Assembly: GCF_000426365.1 (NCBI RefSeq)
Contig: NZ_AUFF01000001.1
Span: 558,001-622,000, forward strand
Length of the DNA: 64,000 bases
DNA from: Arenimonas composti TR7-09 = DSM 18010
GTDB taxonomy: Bacteria; Pseudomonadota; Gammaproteobacteria; Xanthomonadales; Xanthomonadaceae
Direction: 5' to 3'
Part shown: piece by piece, positions 11,344 through 52,013 of the stretch
Layout of the letters: each line of letters begins with the position of its first letter
How positions within the stretch are numbered: position 1 is the stretch's first letter
Notes under the pieces: model-generated
Told to the model about the DNA's origin: nothing
Database searches by the model: none
What the model saw: the letters and a program-made list of their open reading frames with translations, nothing else
Made by a program: the position numbers and the translations under genes

Positions 11344-12126
11344 ATGAACGCGATGTGGAAGGAACGCTTCGCCGGCATCGACCGGCTGTACGGCAGCGGC
11401 GCCGGTGCCCGCCTGGCGACGCGGCACGCCTGCGTCGTCGGCCTCGGCGGTGTCGGTTCGTGGCTCGTCGAATCGCTGGCCCGCAGCGGCGTCGGCCGGC
11501 TGACCCTGATCGACGCCGACGACGTCTGCGTCAGCAACACCAACCGCCAGCTGCATGCGCTCGAAGGCGAGTACGGCCGCGGCAAGGGCGAGGTGCTGGC
11601 CGAGCGCTGCCGCGCGATCAACCCGGGCATCGCCATCGAGGTGGTGCCGGCTTTCCTGACGACCGCCAATCTCGAGTCGCTGCTCGATCGCGACCACGAC
11701 ATCGTGCTCGACGCCTGCGACAGCCTGCGCACGAAGCTCGAGATGATCGTGTGGTGCCGGCGCCGCAAGCTTCCACTGGTGGTCTGCGGTTCCGCCGGTG
11801 GCCGCACCGACCCGACCCTGGTACGCGTGCGCGACCTGTCGCGCACCGAGCACGACGCGATGCTGGCCCTCGTGCGCAAGCGGCTGCGCGCCGGCCACGG
11901 CTTCCCGCGCAATCCCGACCGCTACTTCGGGGTGCCCGCGGTGTACTCGCTCGAGAACGTCCGCTATCCGCAGGCCGACGGCAGCGTCTGCGGCGTGCGT
12001 CCGCAGCTCGATGCGGCGGCCGCACTGAAGCTCGACTGCGGCACCGGCCTCGGCGCGGCGACGCATGTCACGGGCACGTTCGGATTCGCGATGGCCGGCA
12101 GGGCGCTGGCGCTGCTGCTCAAGTGA
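11344..12126 (+). CDS. tcdA: tRNA threonylcarbamoyladenosine dehydratase TcdA
   Basis: A 260-residue E1-like (ThiF/MoeB-type) enzyme that converts t6A at position 37 of ANN-decoding tRNAs into its cyclic form, using ATP. The nucleotide-binding loop is VGLGGVGSW (about 33-41), followed by LIDADDVCVSNTNRQ, which holds the conserved Asp and Arg/Asn residues. The VLDACDSLRTK and CGSAGGRTDPT blocks are typical of TcdA/CsdL. The C-terminal part with GVPAVYSLE and GTFGFAMAGRA is also typical. It is the first gene of a run of four closely spaced genes on this strand. Confidence 0.92.
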   Translation: MNAMWKERFAGIDRLYGSGAGARLATRHACVVGLGGVGSWLVESLARSGVGRLTLIDADDVCVSNTNRQLHALEGEYGRGKGEVLAERCRAINPGIAIEVVPAFLTTANLESLLDRDHDIVLDACDSLRTKLEMIVWCRRRKLPLVVCGSAGGRTDPTLVRVRDLSRTEHDAMLALVRKRLRAGHGFPRNPDRYFGVPAVYSLENVRYPQADGSVCGVRPQLDAAAALKLDCGTGLGAATHVTGTFGFAMAGRALALLLK

Positions 12127-12161: not shown

Positions 12162-12563
12162 GTGAGCGGCTGGATCGTGGCCTTCGCGCTGCTGGCCGCC
12201 GGGGCCGCGGTGTACTGGTTGAGCAGCCGCCCGGCAGTGTTCGAACACTGGTTCCGTCTGCCGCAGCCCTCCGCGCTCGGCCTCGACCACCCGCGTCTGG
12301 TCGCGGTCGCGGATGCGATTCGCCGCTGGTTCCCGGACCTCTGCTGGTCCGTGTTCGCCGGGGTGGCGGCGCGCGACCTGGCGTGGGCCACCTTCCGGCG
12401 TGTCGACCTCGTCGTCGTCGTCTTCGCGGCGATGTCCTGGGAACTCGGCCAGCTCGTGCTCGGACACCGCGGCTACGCACATTCCGACCTGGCCATCAGT
12501 TTCCTCGGCGGCGTGCTAGCGTTCGCGTGGCCCGGGGAAACCGCGAAGGAGTCCGAAACCTGA
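12162..12563 (+). CDS. Small VanZ-like membrane protein
   Basis: A 133-residue protein with about four hydrophobic segments (about 3-20, 55-72, 84-104, 113-128). The order FPDLCWSVFAG, then WELGQLVLG, then HSDLAISFLGG loosely resembles the VanZ-like pattern of Trp, Glu-x-x-Gln and Asp-Leu, but I do not consider that proven. The GTG at 12162 places the first helix right after the start; an earlier GTG at 12123 overlaps the tcdA stop and would add 13 polar residues. The stop codon overlaps the next ATG (TGATG), implying translational coupling to the repeat protein. Function unknown. Confidence 0.65.
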   Translation: MSGWIVAFALLAAGAAVYWLSSRPAVFEHWFRLPQPSALGLDHPRLVAVADAIRRWFPDLCWSVFAGVAARDLAWATFRRVDLVVVVFAAMSWELGQLVLGHRGYAHSDLAISFLGGVLAFAWPGETAKESET

Positions 12564-13231
12564 TGAAGACGTGGATCGTCGCCGCGCTCGCCGTGGCGCT
12601 TTCGGGAGCGGTCGGCGCTGCCGCCGCACAGCAAGACGAGGTCGACCGGCTGCAACTGCTCGGCCCGGATGTCCAGGACTGGCACCTGAGCCTCGATGGC
12701 CACCGCTGGCGCATTCCCCGGGGCTGCCTGATGGGCCGCCTGTTCGGCGGTGACGAGGAAGGCCGGCGCTTCGGTACCGGCGAGGAAGGCAGGTTGCTGG
12801 GCGCCGGTGAAGAGGGTCGCCGCCTCGGGGCCGCGGAAGACGGCAGACGCCTGGGAGCGGACGAGGAAGAACGCCACCTGGGGGCAGCGGAAGACGGGCG
12901 CCGTCTCGGCGCCGACGAGGAAGGCCGCCGGCTGGGCGCCGCCGAGGAAGGCCGACGGCTCGGCGCGGACGAAGAGGGAAGAAGGCTGGGGGCGGCCGAG
13001 GAGGGCCGACGCCTCGGTGCCGCGGAAGAAGGCCGACTTCACGGCTCGGCGGTCGAACCGCTCGCGTGCCGGCATTACAGCGATGCGGACGTGCCGAATG
13101 CCGTTCTCGTCGAAGGCGTGGGTGGACGCCGCATTGTCCTCAATCCGGCGAGCCGTTACCTTCTCGAAGTCCGTCACCTTCCGGCGTCCGCCGGTGGTGA
13201 CGAGGACGACAGGCTGATCGTCATTCGATGA
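12563..13231 (+). CDS. Secreted protein with eleven tandem nonapeptide repeats
   Basis: A 222-residue protein with a signal peptide (about 1-22, ending in the alanine run before QQDEVD). A short domain follows, then eleven contiguous copies of a nine-residue unit with consensus GAxEEGRRL (residues 62-160), and a C-terminal domain of about 60 residues with strand-like LVEGVGGRRIVLN and YLLEVRHLP segments. The only two cysteines (55 and 169) bracket the repeat array, so a periplasmic disulfide closing it is possible. Each repeat is acidic then basic. I do not recognise the family. The start overlaps the previous stop, and the next gene is a lipoprotein. Confidence 0.75.
   Translation: MKTWIVAALAVALSGAVGAAAAQQDEVDRLQLLGPDVQDWHLSLDGHRWRIPRGCLMGRLFGGDEEGRRFGTGEEGRLLGAGEEGRRLGAAEDGRRLGADEEERHLGAAEDGRRLGADEEGRRLGAAEEGRRLGADEEGRRLGAAEEGRRLGAAEEGRLHGSAVEPLACRHYSDADVPNAVLVEGVGGRRIVLNPASRYLLEVRHLPASAGGDEDDRLIVIR
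12746..13042 (+). repeat. 27-bp tandem repeat array, 11 copies, coding
   Basis: Eleven head-to-tail 27-bp units encode GAxEEGRRL. The units differ mostly at third codon positions (for example CGC, CGA, CGG, AGA and AGG all serve for Arg), so the peptide is conserved while the DNA has drifted. The array has no gap and ends with a degenerate unit GAAEEGRLH. Confidence 0.9.
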
Positions 13232-13248: not shown

Positions 13249-13809
13249 ATGAGCAACACGAAGCAGGCGCGCGGCTGGCGTGCAGTCCTCGCAATGGTGG
13301 CGTTCGCCGTCGCGGCCATCGCCGGGCTCGGGTGTGCGACCGGCCCGGTCATGGACACGACGCCACGGCCGATTCCCACCGGAACGCTGGTCAACCGCGA
13401 CGTGACCATCATCGCCGAAGACGGCAGTTTCCAGCTGCAGCCGGGCGAACAGTTCCCGACGCCGTTCGCGACCAGTGCCCTCTGGAACGCGTCGATCCCC
13501 GCGAACACGCTGGTCAATACCTACACACGCGCCCGTTCGTGGGGCGCACGTCCGGTGATCATCCGCCAGGCGGGCAAGGCCGACCTGCACGGCCTGCTGC
13601 TGTTCAACAATGCGATCGCGGCCGCGGTGGGTCCCGGCAGCCAGTCGTATTACGTGAACCTGCCGCAGGACAAGCTGGACAACGCGCGTCGCGGCAACAC
13701 GACGGTCGTCTACGAGATGATGCGCTACAACGTCATCGACGAGTACGGCACGTCGCAGCAGAAGGACTGGTACAGCTGGATCCTGTGGATGTCCTCGACG
13801 CCGCTCTGA
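13249..13809 (+). CDS. Putative lipoprotein of unknown function
   Basis: A 186-residue protein with a long N-region, a hydrophobic stretch and a lipobox GLGC (lipidated Cys about 29). The mature part is mixed alpha/beta with no motif that I recognise; landmarks are GTLVNRDVTIIAEDGSF, a QLQPGEQFPTPFATS loop and a tyrosine/tryptophan-rich C-terminus. An AGGGGAG Shine-Dalgarno before this ATG decides the start; an upstream ATG at 13228 overlaps the repeat-protein stop but lacks such a site. Its position directly after the repeat protein suggests that the two envelope proteins work together. Function unknown. Confidence 0.7.
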   Translation: MSNTKQARGWRAVLAMVAFAVAAIAGLGCATGPVMDTTPRPIPTGTLVNRDVTIIAEDGSFQLQPGEQFPTPFATSALWNASIPANTLVNTYTRARSWGARPVIIRQAGKADLHGLLLFNNAIAAAVGPGSQSYYVNLPQDKLDNARRGNTTVVYEMMRYNVIDEYGTSQQKDWYSWILWMSSTPL

Positions 13810-13849: not shown

Positions 13850-14620
13850 TCAGGCGCCGCGACCGAACAGGCGCTCGGCGTTCGTGAACGTCTGCCGTGC
13901 CACTTCGTCTGCCGACTGGCCGCGCAGCGCCGCGACGGTTTCCAGCACCTCGACCAGGAACGCCGGCTCGTTGCGGCCACCGCGTTGCGCCTGCCCCGGC
14001 TGGTCGGGCGCGTCGGTCTCCAGCAGCAGGAATTCGCCCGGCATCGACGCGACGGTGCGGCGCAGCCGCCGCGCCCGTTCATAGGTCACCGGGCCACCGA
14101 TGCCGAGGCTGAAGCCGAGATCCCAGAGCTGGCGCGCCTGCTCGTCGCTGCCGGACCAGCTGTGCACGACGCCGTGCAGGCCGCCGATCTTGCGGATCGC
14201 CTGGATCACCGCGTCGACCGCGCGCCGGGCGTGTACGACCACCGGCAGGTCGAACTCGCGTGCCAGCCGCAGCTGGCCGTCGAAGAAGCGCGCCATCGCG
14301 TCGTGATCGAGGCCCTCGACGTAGAAGTCGAGGCCGCACTCGCCGACGGCGGCCGGACGTTCGCCGTCGAGCCAGCGCCGCAGCGCGTCGAGATCGGCGT
14401 CGCGGTGGTCGGCGAGGAACATCGGATGCAGTCCGTAGGCGGGCCGCAATCCTTCTTCCTCCGTGCAGATCCCGCGCAGCTTCGGCCAGCCGGCACGGTT
14501 GACCGCCGGCACCAGCTGTCGCGTCACGCCGGCGGCACGGGCGCGCGCCAACACCGCGTTGCGGTCGACGTCGAACTCGGCCGCGTCGAGGTGGCAGTGG
14601 CTGTCGTAGAGCATGGTCAT
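13850..14620 (-). CDS. tatD: TatD family metal-dependent hydrolase (deoxyribonuclease)
   Basis: A 256-residue TIM-barrel metallohydrolase of the TatD group, with 3'-5' DNase or D-aminoacyl-tRNA deacylase activity in relatives. The metal ligands are visible: HCH near the N-terminus (His 8 and 10), the Glu in VGECGLDFY (about 94), His in VVVHAR (about 130), His in VVHSWSG (about 153) and Asp in LLLETDAP (about 203). It starts with ATG overlapping the TGA of the upstream small membrane protein on the same strand. Which TatD subfamily it belongs to (TatD, YcfH or YjjV) cannot be decided by eye; the short length leans to the YjjV side. Confidence 0.87.
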   Translation of the reverse strand: MTMLYDSHCHLDAAEFDVDRNAVLARARAAGVTRQLVPAVNRAGWPKLRGICTEEEGLRPAYGLHPMFLADHRDADLDALRRWLDGERPAAVGECGLDFYVEGLDHDAMARFFDGQLRLAREFDLPVVVHARRAVDAVIQAIRKIGGLHGVVHSWSGSDEQARQLWDLGFSLGIGGPVTYERARRLRRTVASMPGEFLLLETDAPDQPGQAQRGGRNEPAFLVEVLETVAALRGQSADEVARQTFTNAERLFGRGA

Positions 14621-14853
14621 TCGGCAGGCGGCTCCCGGGGCGGTGCCGGCGCGGCCGCCTCGACGACGGCCCCGCGCCGCTTCCAGTTGGCGAGCACGAG
14701 CACGCCGAGCGCGGTCACCAGCTCGTCCAGCAGGGGCAGGGGATCCGGCAGGAGCCAGCTGACCAGCATCAGCACCAGCGTCACCCGGAACAGGGTCGGG
14801 TGCTCGAGGCGGCTGAACCAGCCGACGACCGGGGCGGTGAGGGGGTGCGGCAT
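14617..14853 (-). CDS. Small membrane protein of unknown function
   Basis: A 78-residue protein with one or two hydrophobic segments: a helix around LFRVTLVLMLVSWLLP, a proline break, and LDELVTALGVLVLANWKRR, then an alanine/proline-rich tail. It resembles small conserved Xanthomonadaceae membrane proteins, but I cannot name the family securely. A GAGG site seven bases upstream of the ATG supports the start; a longer version with MRGRS is less likely. Its TGA overlaps the tatD ATG, so the two are coupled. Confidence 0.65.
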   Translation of the reverse strand: MPHPLTAPVVGWFSRLEHPTLFRVTLVLMLVSWLLPDPLPLLDELVTALGVLVLANWKRRGAVVEAAAPAPPREPPAE

Positions 14854-14982
14854 GGATCGACCTCGCACGGCAGCGCGTGAAAACGTGATGATGACATCCT
14901 GCGCTTGCTCCGCCTGCGTTCAGGCACGCGGAGCGAGGCTCCGGGCGACGGTGTCGCCACACCGCCAGATGAGGAGTCCGCC

Positions 14983-50502: not shown

Positions 50503-51507
50503 ATGCGCCTGCCGAGCCGATGCCTCGCCCTGTTGCTGCTGCTGGCCGCGGCCATGCCCGCCTGGGCGCAGACGCAGATCAAGATCGCCACGCTCGCGCC
50601 CGACGGCTCGTCGTGGATGCGCGAACTGCGCGTTGCCGCCGCCGAGGTCGAGGCCGGCACCGGCGGCCGCGTGCAGGTGAAGTTCTATCCCGGCGGGGTG
50701 ATGGGCACCGACGCCGTCGTACTGCGCAAGATGCGCCTGGGCCAGTTGCAGGGTGGGGTGCTGACCGGCAGCGAGCTGTCGCTGGTGTATCCGGACGCGC
50801 CGGCCTACAGCCTGCCGTTCCTCTTCTCCGGCTGGGACGAGGTCGCGCGCGTGCGCGAATCCGTCGATCCGCTGCTGGCCGCGGGTTTCGAGGAGCGCGG
50901 CATCCACATGCTCGGCGCCACCGGCGTCGGTTTCGCCTACTTCCTGGGCACGAAGCCGATGGCCGACGCCGCCGCCTGGCGCGGCCTGAAGCTGTGGATC
51001 CCGACCAACGACGAAATCGCCCGGCGGGTGTTCGAGATCGCCGGCGTCGGCACCATTCCGCTGCCGATCGGCGACGTGTTCACCAGCCTGCAGACCGGGA
51101 TGATCGACACCGTCGCGAACACCCCCGCCGGCACCGTCGCCCTGCAGTGGCACGGCAAGGTGCGGCACATGGTCGACCTGCCGCTGACTTATGTCGTCGC
51201 CTACCTGGTGCTCGACCAGCGCGCCTGGGAGCGGCTCTCCGCCGGGGACCAGGCGGTGTTGGCGCGCGCCTTCGCCGCGGCCGCCGCGCGCATGGACGCC
51301 AACGCCCGCCGCGACGACGAGGCCGCACTGGCGGCGATGCAGCGCCAGGGCCTGCAGGTGAGTCCGCCGGATCCGGCCGAGGCCGCACGCTGGCGCCGCT
51401 TCGGCGAGCAGGTGCAGCGCGACATGGAAGCCGACGGTTCCCTGTCGCCGGCGATCCTGGCGGCGATCCGCGCCGCCCGCGGCACGCCGGCGCCCGCGGC
51501 GAACTGA
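50503..51507 (+). CDS. TRAP transporter periplasmic solute-binding protein (DctP family)
   Basis: A 334-residue DctP-type binding protein with a 22-residue signal peptide ending AWA. QIKIATLAPDGSSWMREL and VKFYPGGVMGTD form the first ligand-binding lobe. The TRAP signature GFAYFLGTKPMAD and KLWIPTNDEI follows, with VFTSLQTGMIDTVANTP in the second lobe; the arginine that commonly binds carboxylates is expected around KLW. The ligand is unknown, but the TatT partner points to a non-sialic, possibly hydrophobic solute. It sits ten bases after the TatT-like gene. Confidence 0.87.
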   Translation: MRLPSRCLALLLLLAAAMPAWAQTQIKIATLAPDGSSWMRELRVAAAEVEAGTGGRVQVKFYPGGVMGTDAVVLRKMRLGQLQGGVLTGSELSLVYPDAPAYSLPFLFSGWDEVARVRESVDPLLAAGFEERGIHMLGATGVGFAYFLGTKPMADAAAWRGLKLWIPTNDEIARRVFEIAGVGTIPLPIGDVFTSLQTGMIDTVANTPAGTVALQWHGKVRHMVDLPLTYVVAYLVLDQRAWERLSAGDQAVLARAFAAAAARMDANARRDDEAALAAMQRQGLQVSPPDPAEAARWRRFGEQVQRDMEADGSLSPAILAAIRAARGTPAPAAN

Positions 51508-52013
51508 TGCGACGGCGCTGGCTGCAGGGCCTGCACCGCGCCGAGGACGCGCTGCTCGCGGGCCTGCTGGCGGCGTTGCTGCTGCTCGCGGTGGCGCAGA
51601 TCGGCCTGCGCGTGTTGTTCGACGCCGGCCTCGACTGGGCCGAGCCGGTCAGCCGCACCGGTGTGCTCTGGCTGGCCCTGTTCGGCGCGCTCGGCGCGAC
51701 CCGTGAACGCCGGCAGATCGCGGTCGACGCGCTGCCGCGGCTGCTCGCCGCCGGCCCGCGCCGGCTGCTCTGGGTGGTCGCGCAGGCCGTGGCCGCGGCG
51801 GTGTCGGCGGCGTTGGCCTGGTTCGGGCTCGGGATGGTGCTGCTGGAGCGCGAGGCGCCGGTGCCCTTCGTCGCCGGCATCCCGAGCTGGGTGCCGATGC
51901 TGGCGGTGCCGGCGGGATTCGCGCTGATGGCGCTGCGCTTCGCGATCGCGGCGACGCTGCCGCCGCCCGAGCCCGACGTGGCCTCCGCAAGCGGCGCGGA
52001 GGCGGGCCGATGA
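51507..52013 (+). CDS. TRAP transporter small permease (DctQ)
   Basis: A 168-residue small membrane subunit with four helices (about 15-37, 52-68, 85-108 and 125-148). ALLAGLLAALLLLAVAQIGLR and LDWAEPVSRTGVLWLALFGALGATRERRQIAVDALP follow the DctQ plan, the latter with the Glu and Trp at the end of helix 1. ATG overlaps the last base of the binding-protein stop, and its own TGA overlaps the DctM start. It forms the membrane complex with DctM and links to the DctP-type binding protein. Confidence 0.85.
   Translation: MRRRWLQGLHRAEDALLAGLLAALLLLAVAQIGLRVLFDAGLDWAEPVSRTGVLWLALFGALGATRERRQIAVDALPRLLAAGPRRLLWVVAQAVAAAVSAALAWFGLGMVLLEREAPVPFVAGIPSWVPMLAVPAGFALMALRFAIAATLPPPEPDVASASGAEAGR

What the first reader, a model, noticed from the sequence alone, without database searches (positions are those of the whole stretch)
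12563..13231. Secreted protein built of eleven GAxEEGRRL nonapeptides, bracketed by its only two cysteines
Residues 62-160 are eleven uninterrupted nine-residue units, each acidic then basic, with Leu and Gly at fixed places. The codons for the same residue differ between units (all Arg codon types except CGT occur), so the peptide rather than the DNA seems selected. Cys 55 and Cys 169 flank the array and could close it by a disulfide in the periplasm. I know no named family with this unit. A period of nine suggests a repetitive solenoid or charged helical rod.
Basis: partly seen in the sequence, partly recalled or inferred. Interest (0 to 1): 0.7.

Follow-up and report, generated by a model that had tools for sequence, protein, structure and literature searches.

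The report
Orphan secreted nine-residue-repeat protein
A rare secreted bacterial protein carries eleven near-identical charged nine-residue units whose protein spelling is kept while their DNA spelling has drifted, and it sits in a three-gene set that we found in only two Arenimonas species.

Summary
ORF 12563-13231 (222 aa) has eleven nonapeptides at residues 62-160 and only two cysteines, 55 and 169. One detail is wrong: CGT occurs once. The genus is Arenimonas. A. terrae R29 has an ortholog with twelve units (GDAEDGRRL), both cysteines and the same neighbours. I found no other convincing relative, within the limits of the scans. The gene is the middle of three packed genes (weakly VanZ-like membrane protein, repeat protein, lipoprotein-like protein) between ThiF and TatD genes, which are direct neighbours in 22 of 26 loci; the two carriers are not sisters. 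Peptide constraint is supported: units differ at 0.72 of silent but 0.16 of replacement sites. AlphaFold2 does not support a rod or solenoid: for A. terrae it gives confident strands at both ends (pLDDT 80-88) and an almost structureless array (35-48). I favour a multivalent charged loop inserted in a periplasmic beta domain and clamped at its base by the cysteines. That the two ends form one domain, the disulfide and the function are inferred. No fold search could be run.

The parts
11344..12126 (+). ThiF-family gene (TcdA-like, name recalled) upstream; conserved flank, not part of the three-gene set
   Evidence: Pfam ThiF 7.4e-35; found in 26 of 27 genus genomes
12162..12563 (+). gene 1: small hydrophobic, probably membrane protein, weakly VanZ-like; start GTG 12162 chosen by eye; its TGA shares one base with the ATG of the repeat gene
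   Evidence: Pfam VanZ E 0.016, 16.3 bits, below the 30.1 cutoff; A. terrae homolog no match; 42% identical to A. terrae; 2 of 200 order genomes; sequence
12563..13231 (+). gene 2: the repeat protein, 222 aa
   Evidence: ortholog P0002 in A. terrae
12563..12628 (+). signal peptide, residues 1-22, likely cleaved before Gln23 (A. terrae: ASA/Q)
   Evidence: by eye; no predictor run
12629..12745 (+). N-terminal cap, residues 23-61: DWHLSLDGHRWRIP hairpin and Cys55 (CLM)
   Evidence: 43% identical to A. terrae; strands 41-44 and 47-50 predicted, pLDDT about 62-67, 80 in A. terrae
12746..13042 (+). array: eleven nonapeptides, consensus G-A-[AD]-E-E-G-R-R-L
13043..13228 (+). degenerate last unit with Cys169 and C-terminal beta cap, residues 161-222
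   Evidence: 42% identical to A. terrae; strands predicted, block means 60-76, 83-88 in A. terrae from residue 171
13249..13809 (+). gene 3: lipoprotein-like protein, 186 aa (AGLGC; Gly at -3 is unusual for a lipobox, so lipidation is uncertain)
   Evidence: 59% identical in A. terrae; 2 of 297 family genomes; no Pfam match at E 1
13850..14620 (-). TatD-like nuclease gene (name recalled), convergent flank; ORF runs 13850-14962, the shorter start MTMLYDSH was used

Best explanation
The gene encodes a Sec-exported periplasmic or surface protein. A short N-terminal beta hairpin and about five C-terminal strands probably pack into one small beta domain, and the array leaves this domain at Cys55 and returns at Cys169, so that a disulfide can clamp the base of a long loop. 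The loop is a flexible polyampholyte (acidic then basic in every unit) that offers eleven (A. terrae: twelve) copies of the motif G-x-x-E-x-G-R-x-L. I think each unit is a docking site for a partner in the cell envelope, giving many weak contacts; the co-translated membrane protein and lipoprotein-like protein are the first candidates as partners. Shown: the anatomy, orthology, conserved cysteines, gene coupling and peptide constraint. Predicted by AlphaFold2 only: strands at both ends, little structure in the array. Inferred: that the ends form one domain, the disulfide, the docking role.
For: A. terrae model: N hairpin pLDDT 80, C strands 83-88, array 53-167 almost all under 50 with one 5-residue helix; same layout at lower confidence for the window protein. 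Both cysteines kept, spacing 114 and 123. Units under purifying selection: pN/pS 0.23 and 0.29. The constraint is on certain columns: departures from the column majority over 23 units are 0,2,6,1,8,1,0,10,2 for positions 1-9, as for a repeated motif. Three genes co-occur in the same two genomes with overlapping stop and start of genes 1 and 2 in both species.
Against: No partner, binding assay or PAE is available; that the two ends touch is not shown. Only two sequences exist. Strictly kept Gly1, Gly6 and Leu9 could equally mean a regular fold that AlphaFold2 cannot see with two sequences. The window model puts a helix at 113-160. In the window alone the uneven spread over columns is modest (615 of 20000 random spreads are as uneven). 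Column constraint does not say what the constraint is for.
Confidence: 0.4

Rival explanations
1. The array is a regular structure: beta meander or solenoid with turns at E/D-G and L-G, or a charged helix, making a rod.
For: Invariant or nearly invariant Gly1, Glu4, Gly6, Arg7 and Leu9 in 23 units; 54-base period scores above the 27-base one, from alternating AAEE/ADEE units; AlphaFold2 helix 113-160 in the window protein.
Against: Helix confidence is low (block means 47-68) and no helix of that kind appears in A. terrae, where the array is under pLDDT 50 with small exceptions; two Gly per nine residues disfavour a helix (established knowledge); the five window models disagree (means 53.9 to 40.1).
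Confidence: 0.25
2. The two cysteines link different molecules end to end, so that the protein forms disulfide chains or a mesh in the envelope.
For: One cysteine at each end of the array in both species; periplasmic location likely from the signal peptide.
Against: No direct evidence; the cysteines lie beside predicted strands of the end caps, which suits an intramolecular bond as well.
Confidence: 0.12
3. An orphan set with little function of its own, gained or lost often between two convergent genes.
For: Present in 2 of 27 genus genomes, carriers not sisters, absent from A. terrae's sister G003, where ThiF and TatD adjoin.
Against: Purifying selection among units, kept order, coupling, cysteines and copy number near 11-12 across two distant congeners.
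Confidence: 0.13
4. A calcium-binding RTX-like beta roll.
For: Nine-residue period with Gly, acid and Leu.
Against: Unit does not fit GGxGxDxUx, no RTX family match, and an N-terminal signal peptide rather than type I export (by eye).
Confidence: 0.02

Closest known systems
A. terrae R29 ortholog (NZ_SMDR01000001.1; P0002)
   Same: Same gene order, signal peptide, caps, two cysteines, nonapeptide array; 53% identity
   Different: Twelve units with GDAEDGRRL consensus; codons more alike by column and a 52-base exact in-phase repeat, so recently homogenised
RTX nonapeptide proteins (abstract starts of PMC6891781 and PMC3034196 seen in listings)
   Same: Nine-residue tandem unit with Gly, acidic and Leu positions; secreted
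   Different: No GGxGxDxUx unit, no family match, Sec-type signal peptide by eye, Arg-rich
ANDGFRAAL / SDSFRAALA / NADFANLMA nonapeptide proteins of the order (L003, L052, L006)
   Same: Period of nine; G016 copy is hit at 8.2e-4
   Different: Different unit, different flanks, no cysteine-bracketed caps; not relatives in my judgement
Borrelia OspA single-layer sheet and eukaryotic CPAP G-box (both recalled, not compared)
   Same: Charged, turn-rich repetitive beta strands as a possible model for the array
   Different: No sequence match in Pfam or PDB searches; AlphaFold2 shows no such sheet

Membership tests
RTX (hemolysin-type calcium-binding repeats) | match to the curated repeat family | tested here: not met
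   Pfam and NCBIfam scans list no such family for P0001 or P0002
RTX (hemolysin-type calcium-binding repeats) | unit GGxGxDxUx (unit recalled) | tested here: not met
   units are G-A-[AD]-E-E-G-R-R-L and G-D-A-E-D-G-R-R-L
RTX (hemolysin-type calcium-binding repeats) | calcium-induced folding | not testable with these tools
   needs protein
RTX (hemolysin-type calcium-binding repeats) | type I secretion with C-terminal signal | tested here: inconclusive
   an N-terminal signal peptide is seen by eye; no predictor was run
beta solenoid or other regular repeat rod | confident regular structure of the array | tested here: not met
   AlphaFold2 with two sequences, array pLDDT 36-68 by block in the window, 35-48 in A. 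terrae; shallow alignment limits this
beta solenoid or other regular repeat rod | match to a known fold | not tested
   Fold search never accepted a job
VanZ-like (for gene 1) | Pfam PF04892 above its cutoff | tested here: not met
   16.3 bits against 30.1, E 0.016; none for A. terrae
anti-phage defence | PADLOC model match | tested here: not met
   0 families at E 0.1 for P0001, P0002, P0004 and gene 1

The most novel reading that the evidence does not exclude
A new envelope module: a disulfide-clamped loop of a dozen identical docking motifs, carried by a three-gene set that moves or is lost between congeners, in which the window's species has scrambled the codons of the array beyond what its codon use gives, as natural protection of a repeat array against slippage and recombination, while A. 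terrae's array is still being homogenised.
Probability: 0.15. Interest if true: 0.65.

Novelty: new variant of a known kind. Interest (0 to 1): 0.4.

Why it matters
If right, it gives a clean natural pair for asking how a short tandem array is kept: one species with old, codon-scrambled units and one with recent DNA homogenisation, at the same locus and with nearly the same copy number. It would also be a compact, genetically isolated model of multivalent binding by a tethered repeat loop in a bacterial envelope. If the function is minor, it remains an orphan repeat family known from two species.

Tried and rejected
Weak hits examined and dropped. Genus scan: 3 of 27 genomes matched; G016 is another nonapeptide family. 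Order scan: 8 of 397 genomes at E 0.001, two of them the carriers; the other six (seven places, L005-L011) were translated and are other repeats or other frames. Family scan: 10 of 395, two carriers; of the other eight, the loci L048, L054, L009, L051, L052 and L053 show other repeats, L050 shows none at my threshold and is unresolved, G323 and G016 had been read before, L055 was not opened. Phylum scan: 2 of 200 at E 1e-6, own and G1036, whose locus is a repetitive ORF of other make-up. Lipoprotein-like gene in the class: 2 of 369, own and a 21-bit match in G857 that was not followed up further than the repeat screen.

C-terminal cap in the genus: 5 of 27 at E 0.1, two carriers and three weak ones (E 0.0036 to 0.0167). 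L060 and L061 lie in an unrelated-looking ORF. L062, in A. terrae's sister G003, lies in a secreted-looking ORF without an array; it resembles the A. terrae cap (33% over 54 aa, two-sequence E 6e-9) but not the window's (E 0.23) and stays open.

Limits of the scans: genome contigs was scanned twice by peptide patterns; (597 stretches) confirmed none and so missed A. terrae, which (369 stretches, 1 confirmed) found, so absence there is weak. Viral contigs: 90 stretches, none confirmed. Plasmid and phage tblastn: no match, with BLAST's low-complexity filter on. PDB sequence hits were not significant (best E 0.11, 1ywy).

Rejected: that the minus strand is the coding one. Minus frame 1 has a similar pN/pS (0.31 window, 0.26 terrae, against 0.22 and 0.28 for the plus frame), because its silent positions coincide; start coupling, signal peptide and caps favour the plus frame. 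Paper searches: listings and abstract starts only, no paper opened; the motif strings gave 0 papers.

Not run: fold search.

Full report
What is there. The ORF at 12563-13231 gives 222 residues with eleven 9-residue units at 62-160 and cysteines only at 55 and 169. Column counts over the eleven units: G1 11, E4 11, R7 11, G6 10, A2 9, L9 9, E5 9, R8 8, while position 3 is A, D or G. The pattern is far from chance (68 of 90 period-9 matches, at most 23 in 2000 shuffles). All six Arg codons occur, so the remark about CGT is wrong.

The relative. In whole genomes of the same genus, 27 searched, one other true homolog appeared, in G004; its contig length equals that of NZ_SMDR01000001.1, Arenimonas terrae R29, found. 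That protein (P0002, 218 aa) has twelve units GDAEDGRRL plus a degenerate thirteenth, GDLDVGPRC, and cysteines only at 49 and 172. Overall identity is 53%, caps 43% and 42%. Cys spacing is 114 and 123 residues, both 6 modulo 9, which follows from a change by whole units.

Neighbourhood. A ThiF gene was found in 26 of 27 genus genomes. In those 26 loci the ThiF gene is followed directly by a convergent TatD gene in 22 (TatD match begins 1-91 bases beyond the ThiF match); in G008 another gene lies between; in G009 no TatD was seen in the stretch held; in the window and A. terrae three genes lie between. Gene 1 is a small hydrophobic protein with a sub-threshold VanZ match, gene 2 the repeat protein, gene 3 a lipoprotein-like protein. 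The TGA of gene 1 overlaps the ATG of gene 2 in both species. Gene 3 occurs in 2 of 297 family genomes and gene 1 in 2 of 200 order genomes, the same two each time. On a tree of ThiF, TatD and the cytochrome-like neighbour (649 columns), A. terrae groups with G003 (0.995), which lacks the set, and the window's species lies elsewhere. So the set is patchy: gained twice, transferred, or lost repeatedly; I cannot tell which.

Selection and DNA history. Among the window's units pS is 0.72 and pN 0.163 (pN/pS 0.23; Jukes-Cantor dN/dS 0.07, rough because silent sites are near saturation); A. terrae 0.47 and 0.135 (0.29; 0.20). In the window, codons at the same column are no more alike than if shuffled (0.370 against 0.364, 351 of 1000), in A. 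terrae they are (0.631 against 0.571, 3 of 1000), and A. terrae has a 52-base exact in-phase repeat. Hence the A. terrae array has been homogenised recently, which can explain its uniform Asp at position 2 (12 of 12; GAT in 10), and the window's array is old at the DNA level.

Codon scrambling. Drawing codons for the same peptide from eleven window genes gives a mean unit-to-unit DNA identity of 0.749 (sd 0.015); the observed 0.683 was not reached in 2000 draws. With codon use of the three-gene set outside the array 0 of 2000, with that of the rest of the repeat gene 10 of 2000; in A. terrae no effect (340 of 2000). The longest exact in-phase repeat in the window is 14 bases, as short or shorter in 114 of 2000 draws. 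The whole repeat gene has low GC3 (0.73 array, 0.77 outside; ThiF 0.91; A. terrae 0.78 and 0.77), so weak codon bias of this gene explains part; the rest rests on one gene and a small codon reference. One of the reference genes (50520-52010) has GC3 0.67 and may hold non-coding sequence.

Structure. AlphaFold2 with two sequences gives mean pLDDT 53.9 and pTM 0.37 for the window protein: strands 41-44, 47-50 and five in 169-221, array under 50 up to 116, a helix 113-160 with block means 47-68. For A. terrae, mean 55.4 and pTM 0.40: hairpin 35-44 at 80, C-terminal strands at 83-88, array 35-48 with one short helix 157-161. No PAE was shown and no fold search ran, so the joining of both ends into one domain is my inference from a hairpin and strands that are each confident and flank the array.

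Reading. The most economical view is a flexible charged loop of repeated motifs inserted in a small beta domain, closed at the base by the cysteines. Position-wise constraint (departures over 23 units 0,2,6,1,8,1,0,10,2) is not what a mere spacer would show; it fits either a repeated docking motif or a fold that the predictor cannot see. I put 0.40 on the loop, 0.25 on a regular rod or solenoid, 0.12 on end-to-end disulfide chains, 0.13 on an orphan set of little function.

Known kinds. No family matched in Pfam, NCBIfam, PHROGs or PADLOC at the thresholds used, apart from a sub-threshold signal-peptide model (E 0.14), nor any solved structure with significance. RTX is the nearest kind by period; its unit and family match were tested and not met. 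I therefore call it a new variant of a known kind (secreted tandem-repeat proteins), with an orphan unit.

Noticed in passing
L003:1513-2079 (-), L052:896-1897 (+), L006:1-1263 (+): Another nonapeptide family in the order: a single-pass-looking protein with long arrays ANDGFRAAL, SDSFRAALA or NADFANLMA after a shared LGDEG..F(L/M)Q(S/T)D.F stretch; in L003 it follows what look by eye like an anti-sigma and a sigma factor gene.
   Followed up: partly
L005:1342-2229 (-), L048:1338-2834 (-), L008:922-1890 (+): Proteins with a shared cysteine-containing N-terminal domain (FKGFD...GFHACEYPLDVLGYYPP) and arrays of ATGDQGAAS or STGNYAHAA nonapeptides.
   Followed up: no
L063:1431-2117 (-): Secreted-looking protein of SGMGGM repeats with two WVCTQW motifs, each with a cysteine, one inside and one near the end, next to a multihaem-like CxxCH protein.
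   Followed up: no
L062:1117-1794 (+): Secreted-looking ORF without an array in A. terrae's sister species; resembles the C-terminal cap of the A. terrae repeat protein (33% over 54 aa) but not the window's.
   Followed up: partly
window 50520-52013 (+): 497-aa ORF whose DctQ match covers only residues 354-476 and whose GC3 is 0.67; its first two thirds may not be coding.
   Followed up: no
L025 (G008), between ThiF and TatD: In G008 the gene for the glycine-zipper-like protein found elsewhere beyond TatD lies between ThiF and TatD, so this intergenic place is open to other insertions or rearrangements.
   Followed up: no
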